DNA of 64,000 nucleotides from Rhizobiales bacterium Y(2018). GTDB lineage: Bacteria; Pseudomonadota; Alphaproteobacteria; Rhizobiales; Aestuariivirgaceae. The notes under the pieces are model-generated. The model worked only from the letters and a program-made list of their open reading frames with translations. It was not told the origin of the DNA and made no database searches. The translations under genes were made by a program, and so were the position numbers. The stretch is from positions 1 through 64,000 of the forward strand of contig SCPD01000011.1 in assembly GCA_005502925.1 (NCBI GenBank). Reading direction: 5' to 3'. Shown piece by piece: positions 48,927 to 54,785 of this stretch (position 1 is its first letter; every line of letters starts with the position of its first letter).

Positions 48927-49904
48927 ATGACCATGACGAGTGAGTCCGCCTCGTTTCGACTGCGGACCGATGCCCTTCCGGCACGCGACCGCATCGAGAT
49001 CATGCGCGAAGTCTATGGCCGCACGGTCCTCAAGGTCGATGTCGATCCGGTGATGCCGCTTGCCGTCGACATGACATTGCGCGGCGTGCCCGGCGTTGGC
49101 ATCGCCACCGGCTCCAGTTCGCAATTGCGCGCGCATCGCTCGACCGCCTTGATCGACAATGACGACATCATACTGCTCGTGGCGCAGTCGGGCGCCAGCC
49201 TCATGAAACATCGTGGCCGCGAGGAACCCGTCCATGAAGGCCAGGCGTTGATGATGAGCGGTGCCGAAGTCGGCATCAGTCAGATCCAGCCGGGCGGCTT
49301 GCGCTTCATCAATATGAGCTTCTCGATGCGCAAGCTGGCGCCCCTGGTCGGCGATCCGGGTGCCGTCTTCATGCGGCCGCTCCCGACCGATAGCGCGCCG
49401 ATGCGGCTGCTGATCGATTATGTACAGGCGGTGCAGACGGTCGAACGCGAAGCGCCCGCCGAAATGTGGCACCTCGCGGCGACACATATGATCGACCTGA
49501 TGGCCGTCGCGATGGGCGCGACGCGCGACGCCGCAGAGATCGCTCGCGGCCGTGGCGTGCGGGCGGCGCGGCTACGCGCCATTAAGGCCGACATTGCTGC
49601 GCATGGCGCTAGCCTGTCCACCGACCAGATCGCCGCGCGCCATCGTTTGTCACCCCGTTATGTGCGCAAGCTGTTCGAAGGCGAAGGCACGTCGCTGTCC
49701 GACTTCATGCTGGCGCAACGGCTCGAGCGGGCGCATCGCATGCTGAGCGATCCGCGCCAGGCGGGCTCGACCATCACGGCGATCGCTTTCGAGGCCGGCT
49801 TCAACGACCTGTCCTATTTCAATCGCACCTTCCGGCGCCGCTACGGCGCGACACCGTCGGAAGTGCGCGCCGCGGCACTATGGACGCGCGACGACGACGC
49901 GTGA
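48927..49904 (+). CDS. AraC-family regulator
   Basis: The 325-residue protein starts at the ATG at 48927 after CAGGGAGTG. Residues 1-210 form the ligand/cupin-like part (DALPARDRIEIMREVYGRTV, GIATGSSSQLRAHRSTAL). The C-terminal two-helix-turn-helix domain is clear: RHRLSPRYVRKLFEGEGTSL and the signature ITAIAFEAGFNDLSYFNRTF, RRRYGATPSEVR. It probably controls the methyltransferase that follows in the same direction, or itself through the repeats upstream. Confidence 0.92.
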   Translation: MTMTSESASFRLRTDALPARDRIEIMREVYGRTVLKVDVDPVMPLAVDMTLRGVPGVGIATGSSSQLRAHRSTALIDNDDIILLVAQSGASLMKHRGREEPVHEGQALMMSGAEVGISQIQPGGLRFINMSFSMRKLAPLVGDPGAVFMRPLPTDSAPMRLLIDYVQAVQTVEREAPAEMWHLAATHMIDLMAVAMGATRDAAEIARGRGVRAARLRAIKADIAAHGASLSTDQIAARHRLSPRYVRKLFEGEGTSLSDFMLAQRLERAHRMLSDPRQAGSTITAIAFEAGFNDLSYFNRTFRRRYGATPSEVRAAALWTRDDDA

Positions 49905-49993
49905 TGCACGCCGAGATCAAGCAACCCTGGTCCTCACCTGACGCAGAGCCTTCGCCCTATCCTTGCCGCACCACATTGGCGAAGATTATCACC

Positions 49994-50683
49994 ATGAGCA
50001 CTCCCGTTCCTTCCGCCTCGGCCTTCACCCGTTACGCGCAAGCCTATGACGCGATGCGCCGCCGCCTCATCCCCTGCTTCGACGACTTCTACGGTGCGGC
50101 CTTGCGCCTGATCGAAGACTGGAAGATCCGCGATGACTTTCGCGTTCTCGATCTCGGCGCCGGGACCGGCTTGTTCTCGGCCATGATCCTGGAGCGCTTT
50201 CCGAAAGCCCGGCTGCATCTGATCGACGCGTCGTCCGGCATGCTGGACCAGGCCAAAGAGCGTTTCCGCGGCAACCCGTCCGTCACCTTCGGCATTGGCG
50301 ACATGGCGGCGTCCGATTTCGGCGGCCCATGGGATGTCATCGTGTCGGCGCTCGCGATCCATCATCTTGATGATCCAGCCAAGCAGTCACTGTTCGGCCG
50401 CATCGTCAGGACGTTGCGGCCCGGCGGACTGTTCGTGAATGCCGAACAGGTCTTGGGTCCGACGCCGGAAGCGGAAGACCGTTATGTGCGCTTCTGGCAT
50501 GCCGAAATCCGTGCCGCCGGCGTTTCGGAAGAAGAGATCGCCGCGGCTGCCGAGCGTATGGCCTTCGACCGCTGCGCATCCGTCGAGGCGCAGCTTGCCT
50601 GGATGCGCGAAGCGGGCTTTCGCGATGTCGATTGCAGCTTCAAGTCCTGGCGTTTCGCGGTATTGAGCGGGCGCCGGGCATAG
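49994..50683 (+). CDS. Class I SAM-dependent methyltransferase
   Basis: The 229-residue protein begins at the ATG at 49994; longer frames overlap the AraC end. Motif I is RVLDLGAGTGLFSAMIL, then LIDASSGMLDQAKERF and the post-I segment GDMAASDF with ALAIHHLDDPAKQ. It is a UbiE/arsenite-type small-molecule methyltransferase without the cysteine set of ArsM, so arsenic methylation is not indicated. It follows the AraC gene by 89 bases and runs towards the convergent arsenic operon. Confidence 0.85.
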   Translation: MSTPVPSASAFTRYAQAYDAMRRRLIPCFDDFYGAALRLIEDWKIRDDFRVLDLGAGTGLFSAMILERFPKARLHLIDASSGMLDQAKERFRGNPSVTFGIGDMAASDFGGPWDVIVSALAIHHLDDPAKQSLFGRIVRTLRPGGLFVNAEQVLGPTPEAEDRYVRFWHAEIRAAGVSEEEIAAAAERMAFDRCASVEAQLAWMREAGFRDVDCSFKSWRFAVLSGRRA

Positions 50684-50685
50684 CT

Positions 50686-51873
50686 CTATCCCTTCGCCCG
50701 CATCAGGCGCCCTATTCCCAGAAACGTCACCACCGAGCCGGCGCCCAACGCCATGGTGATCCCGAGGGACCAGGTGGCGCCGATCTGCACCATGCCGGCG
50801 GCGAAAGCAAAGGGCGCGGTCGCCGAGACGATCAAACGCGCCGAGGCGACCCGTCCCTGCAGCCTTCCGTAGCCTTCGCTTCCAAACAGCAGAAGCGGCA
50901 AGGTGCCCAGCACGATGCTGAACAGGCCGTTGCCCAAGCCGAAGAGAATGGCAAAGGCCATGGCTCCCGTGACCATCGGCGCAGTCAGAATAAGCACCAG
51001 GAGTGCGCCGGACATCAGAGCCGCCGCGATGGTGGCGAGGATCACCGGTGACAGGTTGCGCCCGAATGCCATGTTGATGAGGCGGCTCGCCACCTGGGAC
51101 GGGCCGAAGACCGTCGCGATGATGGCCGCCGTGGCGGTGAGCCCCAGCGCCGCCAGCATCGGCACCATGTGAATGAGAACCGCCGAGGCGACGAAGGACT
51201 GCAAGGAGAAGGCCAATATCATCAGCGCGAAGCCGATCGGCCGCGAGGCGACCGAGAGCCGGCCGATGACCGGCTCCGTTCCAGCCGCAATCGCATTCCG
51301 GCTGCGCGCCAGTCCCCGCGCCAGCCACGCATGCAACGGCAGGCAGACCAGAAGATTGAGCGCGGCGAAGATCAGATAGACGGAGCGCCATGACATCTGC
51401 GTCTCAAGAAAGGCCGTGATGGGCCAGAAGACGGTCGAGGCAAAGCCGCCGATCAGGGTCAGATAGGTGATGCTCCGTTGCGCCTGGGCGGGATTGAGCT
51501 GCACGAGAAGGGCGAAGGCGGCGCCGTACTGGACGAGGCTCGCCGCCACTTCGACGATAACGAGAGTGCCGACAAATATGAGCTTGTTGGGCGCCAGGCT
51601 GCAACCAACAAGGGCCGCCGCCGCGCAGGCCGAGCCAATGGTCATCAGCCGCCCGGCGCCGTAGCGATCGATCAGGATACCGAACCAGGGCGCCGTCAGC
51701 CCGCCGACCAGCAGCGAAAGCGACAGGGCCGCGAAGATCCACTCAACCGACCATGTCAGATCGCGCGCCATATCCGGCGCCAGGATGCTGAAGGCGTAAT
51801 AGAGCGTCCCGTAGCCAATGATCTGGGTCACGCCAAGGGCGACGATTGGCGCAATCGATAGGCGTGCATTCAT
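50686..51873 (-). CDS. arsK: MFS transporter, ArsK-like
   Basis: The 395-residue, twelve-helix protein reads VALGVTQIIGYGTLYYAFSI at the start, with the MFS turn GILIDRYGAGRLMTIGSACA. I relate the N-terminal pattern to the ArsK group of arsenite/antimonite exporters described in Agrobacterium; this is recall, not a search. The start overlaps the ACR3 stop by one base, so it is in the arsenic operon. A general monocarboxylate-type MFS is the alternative. Confidence 0.75.
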   Translation of the reverse strand: MNARLSIAPIVALGVTQIIGYGTLYYAFSILAPDMARDLTWSVEWIFAALSLSLLVGGLTAPWFGILIDRYGAGRLMTIGSACAAAALVGCSLAPNKLIFVGTLVIVEVAASLVQYGAAFALLVQLNPAQAQRSITYLTLIGGFASTVFWPITAFLETQMSWRSVYLIFAALNLLVCLPLHAWLARGLARSRNAIAAGTEPVIGRLSVASRPIGFALMILAFSLQSFVASAVLIHMVPMLAALGLTATAAIIATVFGPSQVASRLINMAFGRNLSPVILATIAAALMSGALLVLILTAPMVTGAMAFAILFGLGNGLFSIVLGTLPLLLFGSEGYGRLQGRVASARLIVSATAPFAFAAGMVQIGATWSLGITMALGAGSVVTFLGIGRLMRAKG

Positions 51874-52931
51874 CAGGCGTTTTCGGATTCGAGGGACTGC
51901 TTCGCGGTGGAACCCCGCTCATACCATGCCTTGGACCGATTCACGATCGCCACGACCGACAGCATGACCGGCACCTCGACCAGGACGCCGACCACCGTCG
52001 CCAGCGCCGCACCGGAGCTGAAGCCGAACAGGCTGATCGCCGCCGCGACAGCGAGCTCGAAGAAGTTCGAGGCCCCGATCAGGGCGGAGGGACCGGCCAC
52101 GCAATGCCGCTCGCCCAGGATGCGATTGAGCAGATAAGCGAGGCCTGAATTGAAATAGACTTGGATCAGGATCGGCACGGCGAGAATACCGATGACCAGC
52201 GGCTGCGCGATAATCTGTTCGCCCTGGAAGCCGAACAGCAGAACCAGAGTTGCGAGAAGTGCCAGCAGCGACAAGGGCTGCAGCTTCTTCAGGAGACGAT
52301 CGAGCGCCCCCGGCCCGCCGGATGCCAGAAGGAAGCGGCGCAGGAGCTGGGCGGCGATTACGGGAATGACGATATAGAGCCCGACCGAAAGGATCAGCGT
52401 GTCCCACGGCACGATGATTGCGGAGAGGCCGAGCAGCAGGCCGACAATCGGGGCGAAGGCCACCACCATGATCGCATCGTTCAGCGCGACCTGCGACAAG
52501 GTGAAATGCGGTTCGCCCTTGGTGAGGTTGGACCATACGAACACCATGGCCGTGCAGGGCGCGGCGGCGAGAATGATGAGACCGGCAATATAGGAGTCGA
52601 TCTGGTCCGCCGGCAGATAGGAGCGGAACAGCCAGCCGATGAAGAGCCAGCCGAGCAAGGCCATCGAAAATGGCTTCACCGCCCAGTTGATGAAGAGCGT
52701 CACGCCAATGCCGCGCCAATGCCGGCCGACCTCGCCGAGCGCCGCGAAGTCGATTTTCAGCAGCATCGGCACGATCATGAGCCAGATCAGCAGAGCGACG
52801 GGAATATTGACCTTGGCCAACTCGGCAGCGCCGATCGCATGGAATATCCCGGGAAACAAATGGCCGAGCGCAACACCGGCGATGATGCACAGAGCCACCC
52901 AGACGGTCAGATAACGTTCGAATATCGACAT
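51873..52931 (-). CDS. acr3: ACR3-family arsenite efflux transporter
   Basis: The 352-residue inner-membrane protein starts at the ATG at 52931. The family features are in order: ERYLTVWVALCIIAGVALGH, NIPVALLIWLMIVPMLLKID, the substrate cysteine in AAPCTAMVFVWSNLTKG, and LIGASNFFELAVAAAISLFG with the conserved glutamate. It exports As(OH)3, probably with a proton. It lies 4 bases after the ArsC-ArsN2 fusion, so reduced arsenic is passed straight to an exporter. Confidence 0.95.
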   Translation of the reverse strand: MSIFERYLTVWVALCIIAGVALGHLFPGIFHAIGAAELAKVNIPVALLIWLMIVPMLLKIDFAALGEVGRHWRGIGVTLFINWAVKPFSMALLGWLFIGWLFRSYLPADQIDSYIAGLIILAAAPCTAMVFVWSNLTKGEPHFTLSQVALNDAIMVVAFAPIVGLLLGLSAIIVPWDTLILSVGLYIVIPVIAAQLLRRFLLASGGPGALDRLLKKLQPLSLLALLATLVLLFGFQGEQIIAQPLVIGILAVPILIQVYFNSGLAYLLNRILGERHCVAGPSALIGASNFFELAVAAAISLFGFSSGAALATVVGVLVEVPVMLSVVAIVNRSKAWYERGSTAKQSLESENA

Positions 52932-52935
52932 GATG

Positions 52936-53856
52936 TCAGAACTGCTTGGTGAGGATTGTCGCGGAAGCCGGGCAGAGACTGGCGGCTTGCCTCGTTGCCA
53001 GGATCGCTTCCGGCACGGCATCGCGGTCCACTGCTGTGAAGCCTTGTTTCTCGAAAAAGGGAGTGGCCGATGTGGTGATGAGGTAACCTCGCCGCGCTCC
53101 CACCCGCGCCGCCTCCCCGATCAGCAGCCGGAGCGTCGTCTCGCCGATCCCCTGGCCCTTTTGGTCAGGTAAAACCACGATCGAGCGCAGCAGCGCGTCA
53201 CTACCATGCAATTCGTAGCCTGCATAACCAACCGTCGCGCCACCACGGATCACCCGGAAGAATCTGCGGCCCGCTTCCGCCAGATCGTCGACCGGCAGTT
53301 TTTCGGCGGTCAGCGCTGCGTGCAATTCCGGCGCGACACCGTCGATGGGAAGCAAAGCCAGCTGCGTCGCTCCCTCGGCTGAACCGATCCGCTGCAAGTG
53401 ACGGCGCAACACCATGCCGTCGATCGAGTCCATGGGCAGGTTCAAGAAGGCCCCAATGCGGTTTTTGAGGTATCTGGCCGCCATCGAGAAGGCGCGCTCC
53501 TTCTCGATATCGCTCCCCTCCACCGCGGCGGGATCCTCGATGCCCCAATGGGCGGTCATCGGCTGGCCTGGCCAGATCGGGCACATCTCGCCGGCCGCGC
53601 TGTCGCAAACGGTGAAAACGAAATCCATGACGGGGGCGCCGGGCGACGCGAACTCGTCCCATGGCTTCGAGCGCAGCCCGTCGGTCGGATAGTCCAGCGC
53701 GGCCAGGACTTTCAGAGCGAATGGATTGACCTGCCCCTTTGGCTGGCTTCCCGCCGAAAAGGCATTGAACCGTCCGGCGCCTTCCTTGCGCAGGATACTC
53801 TCGGCCAGGATCGAGCGGGCGGTATTGCCGGTGCACAGGAACAGTACATTGTACAT
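52936..53856 (-). CDS. arsC: Arsenate reductase (thioredoxin-type ArsC) fused to ArsN2-like acetyltransferase
   Basis: In this 306-residue protein residues 1-140 are a low-molecular-weight phosphatase-like arsenate reductase. The P-loop is CTGNTAR with nucleophile Cys8, and the relay cysteines are Cys84 (FTVCDSA) and Cys92 (EMCPIWP). Residues 160-306 are a GNAT domain with the acetyl-CoA motif RSIVVLPDQKGQGIG (224-238) and an ending ASLCPASATILTK typical of ArsN2-type proteins. The ATG at 53856 shares one base with the ArsR stop. Reduction of arsenate followed by acetylation in one polypeptide is the inference; both domains look complete. Confidence 0.92.
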   Translation of the reverse strand: MYNVLFLCTGNTARSILAESILRKEGAGRFNAFSAGSQPKGQVNPFALKVLAALDYPTDGLRSKPWDEFASPGAPVMDFVFTVCDSAAGEMCPIWPGQPMTAHWGIEDPAAVEGSDIEKERAFSMAARYLKNRIGAFLNLPMDSIDGMVLRRHLQRIGSAEGATQLALLPIDGVAPELHAALTAEKLPVDDLAEAGRRFFRVIRGGATVGYAGYELHGSDALLRSIVVLPDQKGQGIGETTLRLLIGEAARVGARRGYLITTSATPFFEKQGFTAVDRDAVPEAILATRQAASLCPASATILTKQF

Positions 53857-54209
53857 CACAGCGCGGCACCTTTCATGGGCGCACAGCAGGTGGCGGCGGA
53901 AATGACCGGCGCGCAGATTTCGGGACGGCCCGAGCAGCAATCCTCCATCAGGAACCGGATGAGGCCGCTCAACACGTCATATTCGGCACTGTAGATGATC
54001 GAACGCGCGTCGCGTCGCGCCGTAACGAGGCCGGCGCGTTCCAGCTCTTTCAGATGGAAGGACACATTCGAGGCGCTGACCTCCGCTTTCTCGGCGATGG
54101 CGCCGGCGGCGAGTCCCTCCGGGCCTGCAACGACCAGCATGCGCAGTATCCGGAGCCTTGTTTCCTGCGACAGCGCCGCAAACACGGTTAGGGCTTGACG
54201 TTCGTCCAT
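53856..54209 (-). CDS. arsR: ArsR-family arsenic-responsive repressor
   Basis: The 117-residue winged-helix repressor has the recognition segment EVSASNVSFHLKELERAGLV and the wing RRDARSIIYSAEY. The usual ELCVC metal site of plasmid ArsR is absent. Cysteines cluster at the C-terminus instead (Cys91, 92, 99, 108, 109), like the rhizobial/Corynebacterium-type ArsR in which the sensor lies elsewhere. It is the first gene of the operon and has a perfect-spaced palindrome just upstream. Confidence 0.94.
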   Translation of the reverse strand: MDERQALTVFAALSQETRLRILRMLVVAGPEGLAAGAIAEKAEVSASNVSFHLKELERAGLVTARRDARSIIYSAEYDVLSGLIRFLMEDCCSGRPEICAPVISAATCCAPMKGAAL

Positions 54210-54251: not shown

Positions 54252-54785
54252 ATGGCAAGCTTTGGCAATGGTAATATCGCGTCCCTGGCGCCTCTTCCTC
54301 TGAATGATCTGACAATCGGTGTCTTGCTCGACGGCCTGGCGGCGCGCCCGGCCAGCCGGCTGACTTTCCGATATGACGGCAAGACCATTCGGCGCGGCTA
54401 TCACGTGACCGAGGTGAAGGCGGGGCAGTTCGCCGCCCTCGACTGCGGCGCCAATCCCGAAGCCTGGACCGAAATATTCATCCAGCTCTGGGATGTCGAT
54501 GATGCGCCGGATCAGATGACGGCCGGAAAATTCACCGGTATCATCCGCAAGGTGACCAACCATGTGGCCCTCGACATGAATGCACGGCTGACCTTCGAGG
54601 TGAGCGACGGCATCGGCCCGATGCAGCTTCATCAGGCCAATGGCCCTGTGGCGTCGAACGACGAGATTCTCGTCGAGCTTTCACCGCGCCCGGCGAGTTG
54701 CAAGCCGCGCGATCGCTGGCTGACCGGTCAGAACGAGGCCGCATCGGCCTGCTGCGGACCGAGCAAGTCGCCATGCTGCGCTTGA
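54252..54785 (+). CDS. DUF6428-type protein with C-terminal paired cysteines (arsenic locus)
   Basis: In this 177-residue protein the body has GYHVTEVKAGQFAALDCGAN, then TEIFIQLWDVDDAPDQMTAG and RLTFEVSDGIGPMQLHQANG. I associate this pattern with the DUF6428 family that is found beside arsR in alphaproteobacteria. The tail ends ACCGPSKSPCCA, giving two Cys-Cys pairs (167-168 and 175-176) that could bind trivalent arsenic. It is divergent from arsR across the shared operator, so it is probably induced with it. The biochemical role is unknown; a sequestering or chaperone protein is a hypothesis. It has no signal peptide. Confidence 0.85.
   Translation: MASFGNGNIASLAPLPLNDLTIGVLLDGLAARPASRLTFRYDGKTIRRGYHVTEVKAGQFAALDCGANPEAWTEIFIQLWDVDDAPDQMTAGKFTGIIRKVTNHVALDMNARLTFEVSDGIGPMQLHQANGPVASNDEILVELSPRPASCKPRDRWLTGQNEAASACCGPSKSPCCA

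What the first reader, a model, noticed from the sequence alone, without database searches (positions are those of the whole stretch)
52936..53856. Arsenate reductase fused to an ArsN2-type acetyltransferase
Both domains look intact: the ArsC P-loop CTGNTAR with Cys8, Cys84 and Cys92, and a GNAT motif RSIVVLPDQKGQGIG with an ArsN2-like ending. Reduction of arsenate and acetylation of an arsenical in one chain would channel the product to the ACR3 gene 4 bases downstream.
Basis: partly seen in the sequence, partly recalled or inferred. Interest (0 to 1): 0.75.

Follow-up and report, generated by a model that had tools for sequence, protein, structure and literature searches.

The report
Arsenate reductase fused to ArsN2 acetyltransferase
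A bacterium's arsenic-resistance operon makes one protein from two arsenic-resistance enzymes; such joins are already in print, but they come in several independent forms with unrelated partners, which hints at what the still unexplained acetyltransferase half does.

Summary
On the minus strand, 53856..52936, one intact gene joins a phosphatase-type arsenate reductase (Cys8, Cys84, Cys92) to an ArsN2 domain that passes NCBI's cut-off (145.7 vs 125 bits), in arsR–[arsC-arsN2]–acr3–arsK. Two of four other genomes of the genus carry the same fusion; both halves are under purifying selection.

It is not new in kind: a 2018 review citing Chauhan 2009 says arsN is sometimes fused to arsC or arsD. 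My survey adds scale: of 84 ArsN2 places 39 are fused, 28 to the unrelated glutaredoxin-type ArsC, 5 like the window, 3 in reversed order, 3 to ArsR. That ties ArsN2 to arsenate resistance, but its substrate is unknown. Sequence profile and predicted fold put ArsN2 near N-acetylglutamate synthases, so an amino-acid-like substrate is likely.

'Channels the product to ACR3' is unsupported: arsenite has no amine, and the full-length model is poor.

In passing: DUF6428, head to head with an ArsR-type gene in 17 of 17 hits and with cysteine-pair tails, looks like an undescribed ars protein.

The parts
52936..53856 (-). arsC-arsN2 fusion gene, 306 aa plus stop (start may be GTG at 53859)
   Evidence: open frame; same fusion in L001 and L086
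53422..53856 (-). ArsC domain, residues 1-145: low-molecular-weight-phosphatase-type arsenate reductase, Cys8/Cys84/Cys92
   Evidence: PF01451 55.1 bits; Cys8 87 of 87, Cys84 86 of 87, Cys92 85 of 87 aligned rows, window included
53347..53421 (-). linker, residues 146-170
   Evidence: 33 residues between the two HMM edges in the window, L001, L086, L100, L104, L150; 30 in L151, L152; low confidence in the full-length model
52939..53346 (-). ArsN2 GNAT domain, residues 171-306, with C-terminal Cys295-Pro motif
   Evidence: NF040501 145.7 bits over cut-off 125; model pLDDT 96.2; Cys295 in 60 of 63 rows
53856..54209 (-). arsR, metalloregulator, 117 aa; its stop shares base 53856 with the fusion's ATG
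   Evidence: NF033788 73.8 bits over cut-off 55
51873..52931 (-). acr3 arsenite efflux transporter, 352 aa
   Evidence: TIGR00832 378 bits over cut-off 282.8; only match in the genome at E up to 0.001
50686..51873 (-). arsK arsenite efflux MFS transporter, 395 aa
   Evidence: NF033733 578.2 bits over cut-off 400
54252..54785 (+). DUF6428 gene, divergent from arsR (neighbour; not shown to share the fusion's function)
   Evidence: PF20001 89.9 bits; 17 of 17 DUF6428 hits lie head to head with an ArsR-type gene

Best explanation
The gene makes a two-domain enzyme. The N-half reduces arsenate to arsenite by the Cys8/Cys84/Cys92 relay of phosphatase-type arsenate reductases; ACR3 and ArsK export the arsenite. 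The C-half is an ArsN2 acetyltransferase with its own active site that most likely acetylates the alpha-amino group of a glutamate-like or amino-acid-like arsenic compound. The join keeps the two activities together in amount and place during arsenate stress; it is one of several separate fusions of ArsN2 to arsenate reductases or ArsR. Shown: the gene, both domain identities, intact motifs, selection on both halves, several fusion architectures. Inferred: reductase activity, acetyltransferase activity, substrate, benefit of the fusion.
For: Domain identities and curated cut-offs. Conserved cysteines. Operon arsR, acr3, arsK. Same fusion within the genus and purifying selection on both halves. 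Fusion in 39 of 84 ArsN2 places: 28 Grx-ArsC, 5 phosphatase-type ArsC, 3 reversed, 3 ArsR. Tree of 90 ArsN2 domains: well-supported branches force at least 3 changes of the label for each of the two ArsC types and 2 for ArsR (gains and losses not told apart). ArsN2 profile against PDB: M. tuberculosis ArgA 1.1e-11, an unnamed GCN5-related acetyltransferase close behind at 1.1e-10. The 2019 phylogeny put ArsN2 near glutamate N-acetyltransferases (PMC6465285, passages). A 2025 review says, citing Chauhan 2009, that arsN gives arsenate resistance by a mechanism that needs arsC or arsD (PMC12607644, passage).
Against: The ArsC half is well below the curated cut-off of the thioredoxin-ArsC model TIGR02691 (62.5 vs 174.3). 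45 of 84 ArsN2 places are not fused, and close relatives carry the two as overlapping separate genes, so the join is not needed. N-acetylglutamate synthase cut-offs are not met (27 vs 202.85), and other GNATs score nearly as well by fold, so an amino-acid substrate rests on distant kinship. One recent paper suggests that ArsN2 of a Lysobacter may act outside arsenic detoxification (PMC13163355, passage). No activity was measured.
Confidence: 0.6

Rival explanations
1. The two halves form a channel: the reductase makes an arsenic product that the ArsN2 half acetylates and hands to ACR3.
For: One chain, with acr3 4 bases downstream. All 39 fusions are to ArsC or ArsR, though by construction, since only those partners (and acr3 and arsK, acr3) were looked for.
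Against: Arsenite carries no amine. ArsR fusions and reversed domain order do not fit one fixed channel geometry. Separate overlapping genes exist in near relatives. Full-length model uninformative.
Confidence: 0.08
2. The fusion has no catalytic meaning: overlapping genes in one operon lost a stop or shifted frame, and ArsN2 simply works as a separate enzyme on another arsenical, such as arsinothricin.
For: Relatives keep arsC and arsN2 as genes overlapping by 4 bases in the same order, a small step from fusion; ArsN1 acetylates arsinothricin (PMC6465285, passages).
Against: Fusion is frequent (39 of 84) and exists with two reductase families, PF03960 and PF01451, and with ArsR. No ArsN1 model appears among the families with E up to 0.01 (presence of such models in the library not checked).
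Confidence: 0.27
3. The ArsN2 half is a regulatory or dead domain that only stabilises the reductase.
For: The ArsN2 half evolves faster than the ArsC half (dN/dS 0.27 vs 0.08); the window has Lys233 where 58 of 63 rows have Arg in the acetyl-CoA loop.
Against: dN/dS is still well under 1; Arg224, Ser225, Thr261 and Arg278 are kept in 63 of 63 rows and Cys295 in 60 of 63; GNAT fold predicted at pLDDT 96.2.
Confidence: 0.05

Closest known systems
arsN-arsC fusions noted by Chauhan et al. 2009 (seen only as cited in PMC6205960, passage)
   Same: An arsN sequence joined to an arsenate reductase sequence
   Different: Which reductase family was meant could not be read (paper not held); here the partner is the phosphatase type, while most fusions in my survey use the glutaredoxin type (28 of 39)
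ArsN2 (NF040501; the arsN2 clade of PMC6465285, passages)
   Same: Passes the curated cut-off; sits in an ars operon; close to N-acetylglutamate synthases
   Different: Fused to ArsC; function of ArsN2 unproven
ArsN1 arsinothricin N-acetyltransferase (PMC6465285, passages)
   Same: Acetyltransferase found in ars operons
   Different: ArsN1 is on the phosphinothricin-acetyltransferase side; no ArsN1 model among the matches; the phosphinothricin-type acetyltransferase PA4866 reaches only E 4.5e-3 with the ArsN2 profile
Other ArsC fusions: ArsR-ArsC, Acr3-ArsC of M. tuberculosis, AqpS-ArsC of a marine actinomycete (PMC6205960, passages)
   Same: ArsC joined to another ars function
   Different: Partner is a transporter or regulator, not an acetyltransferase
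N-acetylglutamate synthase / ArgA (PDB 2r8v, 5yge)
   Same: Same GNAT fold over the whole domain, Z 18.0 and 16.1
   Different: NCBIfam cut-offs not met; the profile match to ArgA ends before the C-terminus, where ArsN2 has its conserved Cys-Pro motif

Membership tests
ArsN2 (NF040501) | Curated whole-protein score cut-off 125 bits | tested here: met
   145.7 bits, residues 176-305
ArsN2 (NF040501) | Encoded in an ars operon | tested here: met
   ArsR-type regulator, acr3 and arsK neighbours over their cut-offs
ArsN2 (NF040501) | GNAT fold and acetyl-CoA loop | tested here: met
   PF13508 and PF00583 over cut-off; model pLDDT 96.2 with GNAT matches; loop KGQGIG, Lys in place of the usual Arg
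ArsN2 (NF040501) | Acetyltransferase activity on an arsenical | not testable with these tools
   no assay; no ArsN2 substrate is given in the passages read
Thioredoxin-type ArsC (TIGR02691, pI258) | Curated cut-off 174.3 bits | tested here: not met
   62.5 bits
Low-molecular-weight phosphatase superfamily arsenate reductase (PF01451) | CX5R P-loop plus two further cysteines | tested here: met
   C8-R14, C84, C92; PF01451 55.1 bits over 23.2
Low-molecular-weight phosphatase superfamily arsenate reductase (PF01451) | Arsenate reduction | not testable with these tools
   best solved relative by sequence is 8p5n, named low molecular weight phosphatase family protein, E 5.9e-23; then 1jl3, arsenate reductase, 4.7e-14
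ArsN1 | Match to an ArsN1 model | tested here: inconclusive
   none among the 10 families with E up to 0.01; presence of ArsN1 models in the library was not checked
N-acetylglutamate synthase | Curated cut-off of TIGR01890 or NF003641 | tested here: not met
   27 vs 202.85 and 25.4 vs 344 bits
Published arsC-arsN fusion kind | arsN sequence fused with arsC | tested here: met
   one frame holds both domains; the original paper itself could not be read

The most novel reading that the evidence does not exclude
ArsN2 is a late step of inorganic arsenate detoxification, not an antibiotic-resistance enzyme: it N-acetylates the glutamate-like end of arsenite-thiol conjugates (for instance the gamma-glutamyl amine of arsenite-glutathione, or arsenite-cysteine), its conserved Cys295 helping to hold the arsenic, much as mercapturate formation acetylates thiol conjugates. 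That would explain its kinship to N-acetylglutamate synthase and why it is found joined to two unrelated arsenate reductases and to ArsR.
Probability: 0.1. Interest if true: 0.75.

Novelty: new member of a known kind. Interest (0 to 1): 0.36.

Why it matters
ArsN2 occurs in many ars operons but no substrate is given for it in the papers whose passages I read. Its fusion to two unrelated arsenate reductase families and to ArsR is a functional pointer, and the fused protein is one clean reagent for testing whether ArsN2 acts in arsenate detoxification or on organoarsenical antibiotics. On the seven fused plasmid copies that I read, the gene table at hand lists only the ArsN2 end of the frame; that table is stated to be incomplete, so the original records may say more.

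Tried and rejected
Channelling read from structure: the full-length AlphaFold job had only 5 rows and gave pLDDT 64.8, pTM 0.45, so nothing is said on domain packing. A mixed alignment of fused, ArsC-only and ArsN2-only rows (A2) misplaced the ArsN2 rows (identities 10-26%) and was not used further. The idea that the window is a unique fusion was rejected. Loci that the protein search lists as covering nearly the whole query (L016, L019, L050-L053) turned out to be separate genes in the order arsN2-arsC, not fusions. ArsN1 as the identity of the C-half found no support. The methyltransferase at 49880-50683 was considered as an ArsM and dropped: 24.2 bits to the arsenite methyltransferase model PRK11873 against a cut-off of 263. 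PMC12864828, found by fusion wording, has nothing on such a protein (passages).

Partners other than ArsC and ArsR (and acr3, arsK, acr3) were not sought; the upstream parts of long unfused frames were only read by eye. The samples overlap; the first three give 66 different places and the fourth 18 more. Of the 66, 9 are under the NF040501 cut-off (8 unfused, 1 fused), which leaves 36 fused of 57 over it. The tree has few columns (128) and some long branches, one long-branch pair (L019, L137) may be false; L085 was left out as a copy of L001, and rows under 95 bits were left out. The 63-row alignment A3 is a choice: near copies, the archaeal rows, the other fused phosphatase-type rows, L125, L149 and all plasmid rows were left out. 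Three VIA-align leaders lie within 1 Z of each other and count as tied.

Full report
What is there. On the minus strand, 53856 to 52936 is one open reading frame of 306 codons. Its ATG shares base 53856 with the arsR stop codon; a GTG stands directly before it, and in the close relative L001 the ATG is ACG, so GTG 53859 may be the true start. acr3 begins 4 bases after the stop; arsK shares base 51873 with acr3. NCBIfam names the neighbours over their cut-offs: ACR3 378 bits, ArsK 578 bits, ArsR-type regulator 73.8 bits. The C-half passes the ArsN2 model at 145.7 bits against 125, E 5.6e-43; the next GNAT family has E 7.8e-10. The N-half matches PF01451, has a CX5R loop at Cys8 and further cysteines at 84 and 92, present in 87, 86 and 85 of 87 aligned rows. 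It does not reach the curated cut-off of the pI258 thioredoxin-type model (62.5 against 174.3), so it is filed as a phosphatase-family arsenate reductase and not as a member of that model. These are the only ACR3 and the only over-cut-off ArsN2 of the genome.

Is it real. The same fused frame is in two other genomes of the genus, L001 (apparently the same contig as L085) and L086; two further genomes of the genus have no ArsN2 match. Both halves are under purifying selection, the ArsN2 half less strongly.

How common. I searched the ArsN2 model in the family (5 of 69 genomes with a match), an even sample of the order (53 of 397, 54 places), of the class (9 of 385) and of the phylum (25 of 398, 27 places), each count including the window's genome. 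Searches give 66 different places: 28 are glutaredoxin-type ArsC then ArsN2, 5 are phosphatase-type ArsC then ArsN2 like the window, 3 are ArsR then ArsN2, 1 is ArsN2 then ArsC, 29 are unfused. The phylum sample adds 18 places, 2 fused, both ArsN2 then ArsC. Together 39 of 84 are fused. Ten representatives were scanned against NCBIfam and Pfam: L103, L095 and L114 pass both the Grx-ArsC model TIGR00014 and ArsN2; L099 and L105 pass the ArsR-type model and ArsN2; L131 misses TIGR00014 by 0.35 bits, and the ArsR half of L087 is below its cut-off (47 vs 55). Of plasmid records, 73 hold at least 80% of the window protein in one place; of the 40 listed, 9 are in one piece, and the seven of those that I read carry the fused frame, although the gene table, which is stated to be incomplete, lists only the ArsN2 end. 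Of the others that I read, two keep arsC and arsN2 as separate genes overlapping by 4 bases and three have the order arsN2-arsC.

How often it arose. Four architectures (two unrelated ArsC families before ArsN2, ArsR before ArsN2, ArsC after ArsN2) need separate joining events. On a tree of 90 ArsN2 domains (128 columns, few for so many rows) the architectures need 11 changes; well-supported branches alone force at least 3 for each of the two ArsC-first types and 2 for ArsR. The smallest well-supported mixed set holding the window has 9 rows: 6 phosphatase-type fusions, 2 ArsR fusions, 1 unfused. Gains and losses cannot be told apart. That ArsN2 is joined to two unrelated reductase families and a regulator is the surprising part, and it ties ArsN2 to arsenate resistance; but partners other than ArsC, ArsR, ACR3 and ArsK were not sought.

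What the ArsN2 half resembles. A model of the window's ArsN2 domain from 63 rows has pLDDT 96.2. By profile the best is M. tuberculosis ArgA, 1.1e-11, with a GCN5-related enzyme at 1.1e-10, while a phosphinothricin-type acetyltransferase reaches only 4.5e-3. This agrees with the 2019 paper that put ArsN2 near glutamate N-acetyltransferases (PMC6465285, passages). Arg224, Ser225, Thr261 and Arg278 are invariant in 63 rows and Cys295 is kept in 60. A glutamate-like or amino-acid-like substrate is the inference; a role of Cys295 in holding arsenic is a guess.

What is in print. PMC6205960 (2018 review, passages) says arsN sequences are in some cases fused with arsC or arsD, citing Chauhan 2009, and that the function of ArsN was not known. 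PMC12607644 (2025 review, passages) says arsN gives arsenate resistance by a mechanism that needs arsC or arsD, citing the same paper, which is not held. PMC13163355 (passages) suggests a role outside arsenic detoxification for a Lysobacter ArsN2. Searches with fused, fusion, bifunctional and fusion-protein wording list no title that studies an ArsC-ArsN2 protein; of the papers listed there I read passages of PMC12607644, PMC10190100, PMC6205960 and PMC12864828 and only the listing of the rest. The library lacks most subscription journals.

Mechanism. Most likely the N-half reduces arsenate, ACR3 and ArsK remove arsenite, and the ArsN2 half acetylates an amino-acid-like arsenical or thiol conjugate beside it. 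Channelling to ACR3 has no support: arsenite has no amine, domain order varies, and the full-length model is poor.

Verdict. Observation confirmed; interpretation partly supported; a new member of a known kind with an interesting recurrence.

Noticed in passing
window 54252-54785 (+); loci L187-L203: DUF6428 (PF20001) lies head to head with an ArsR-type gene in 17 of 17 hits (17 of 199 genomes of the order); two of the 17 matches hold an in-frame TGA. All 17 tails hold at least one cysteine pair, 15 of 17 two or more (window: SACCGPSKSPCCA; count). The window's 7.1 Mb genome has 16 over-cut-off ArsR-type genes and 0 of 9 control loci had one, so chance is unlikely. The name occurs in no paper of the library. 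It may be an undescribed arsenite-binding ars protein.
   Followed up: partly
L170, L171, L137/L173: ArsN2 fused in the opposite order, ArsN2 then phosphatase-type ArsC, in two genomes outside the class and one of the window's order.
   Followed up: partly
L099, L105, L087: ArsR-ArsN2 fusions: a regulator joined to the acetyltransferase, which might let the repressor respond to what ArsN2 binds.
   Followed up: partly
L150-L152, L158-L161: The plasmid gene table lists only a shorter arsN2 gene inside an open frame that also encodes ArsC; the table is stated to be incomplete, so the original records may annotate more.
   Followed up: partly
L014 4004-4965, L018 4004-4965: Two phosphatase-type ArsC stretches in tandem in Magnetospirillum fulvum.
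   Followed up: no
window 49880-50683 (+): Class I methyltransferase next to the ars operon on the other strand; best NCBIfam match BioC 65.4 bits, under its cut-off of 184.95; not an ArsM by model.
   Followed up: no
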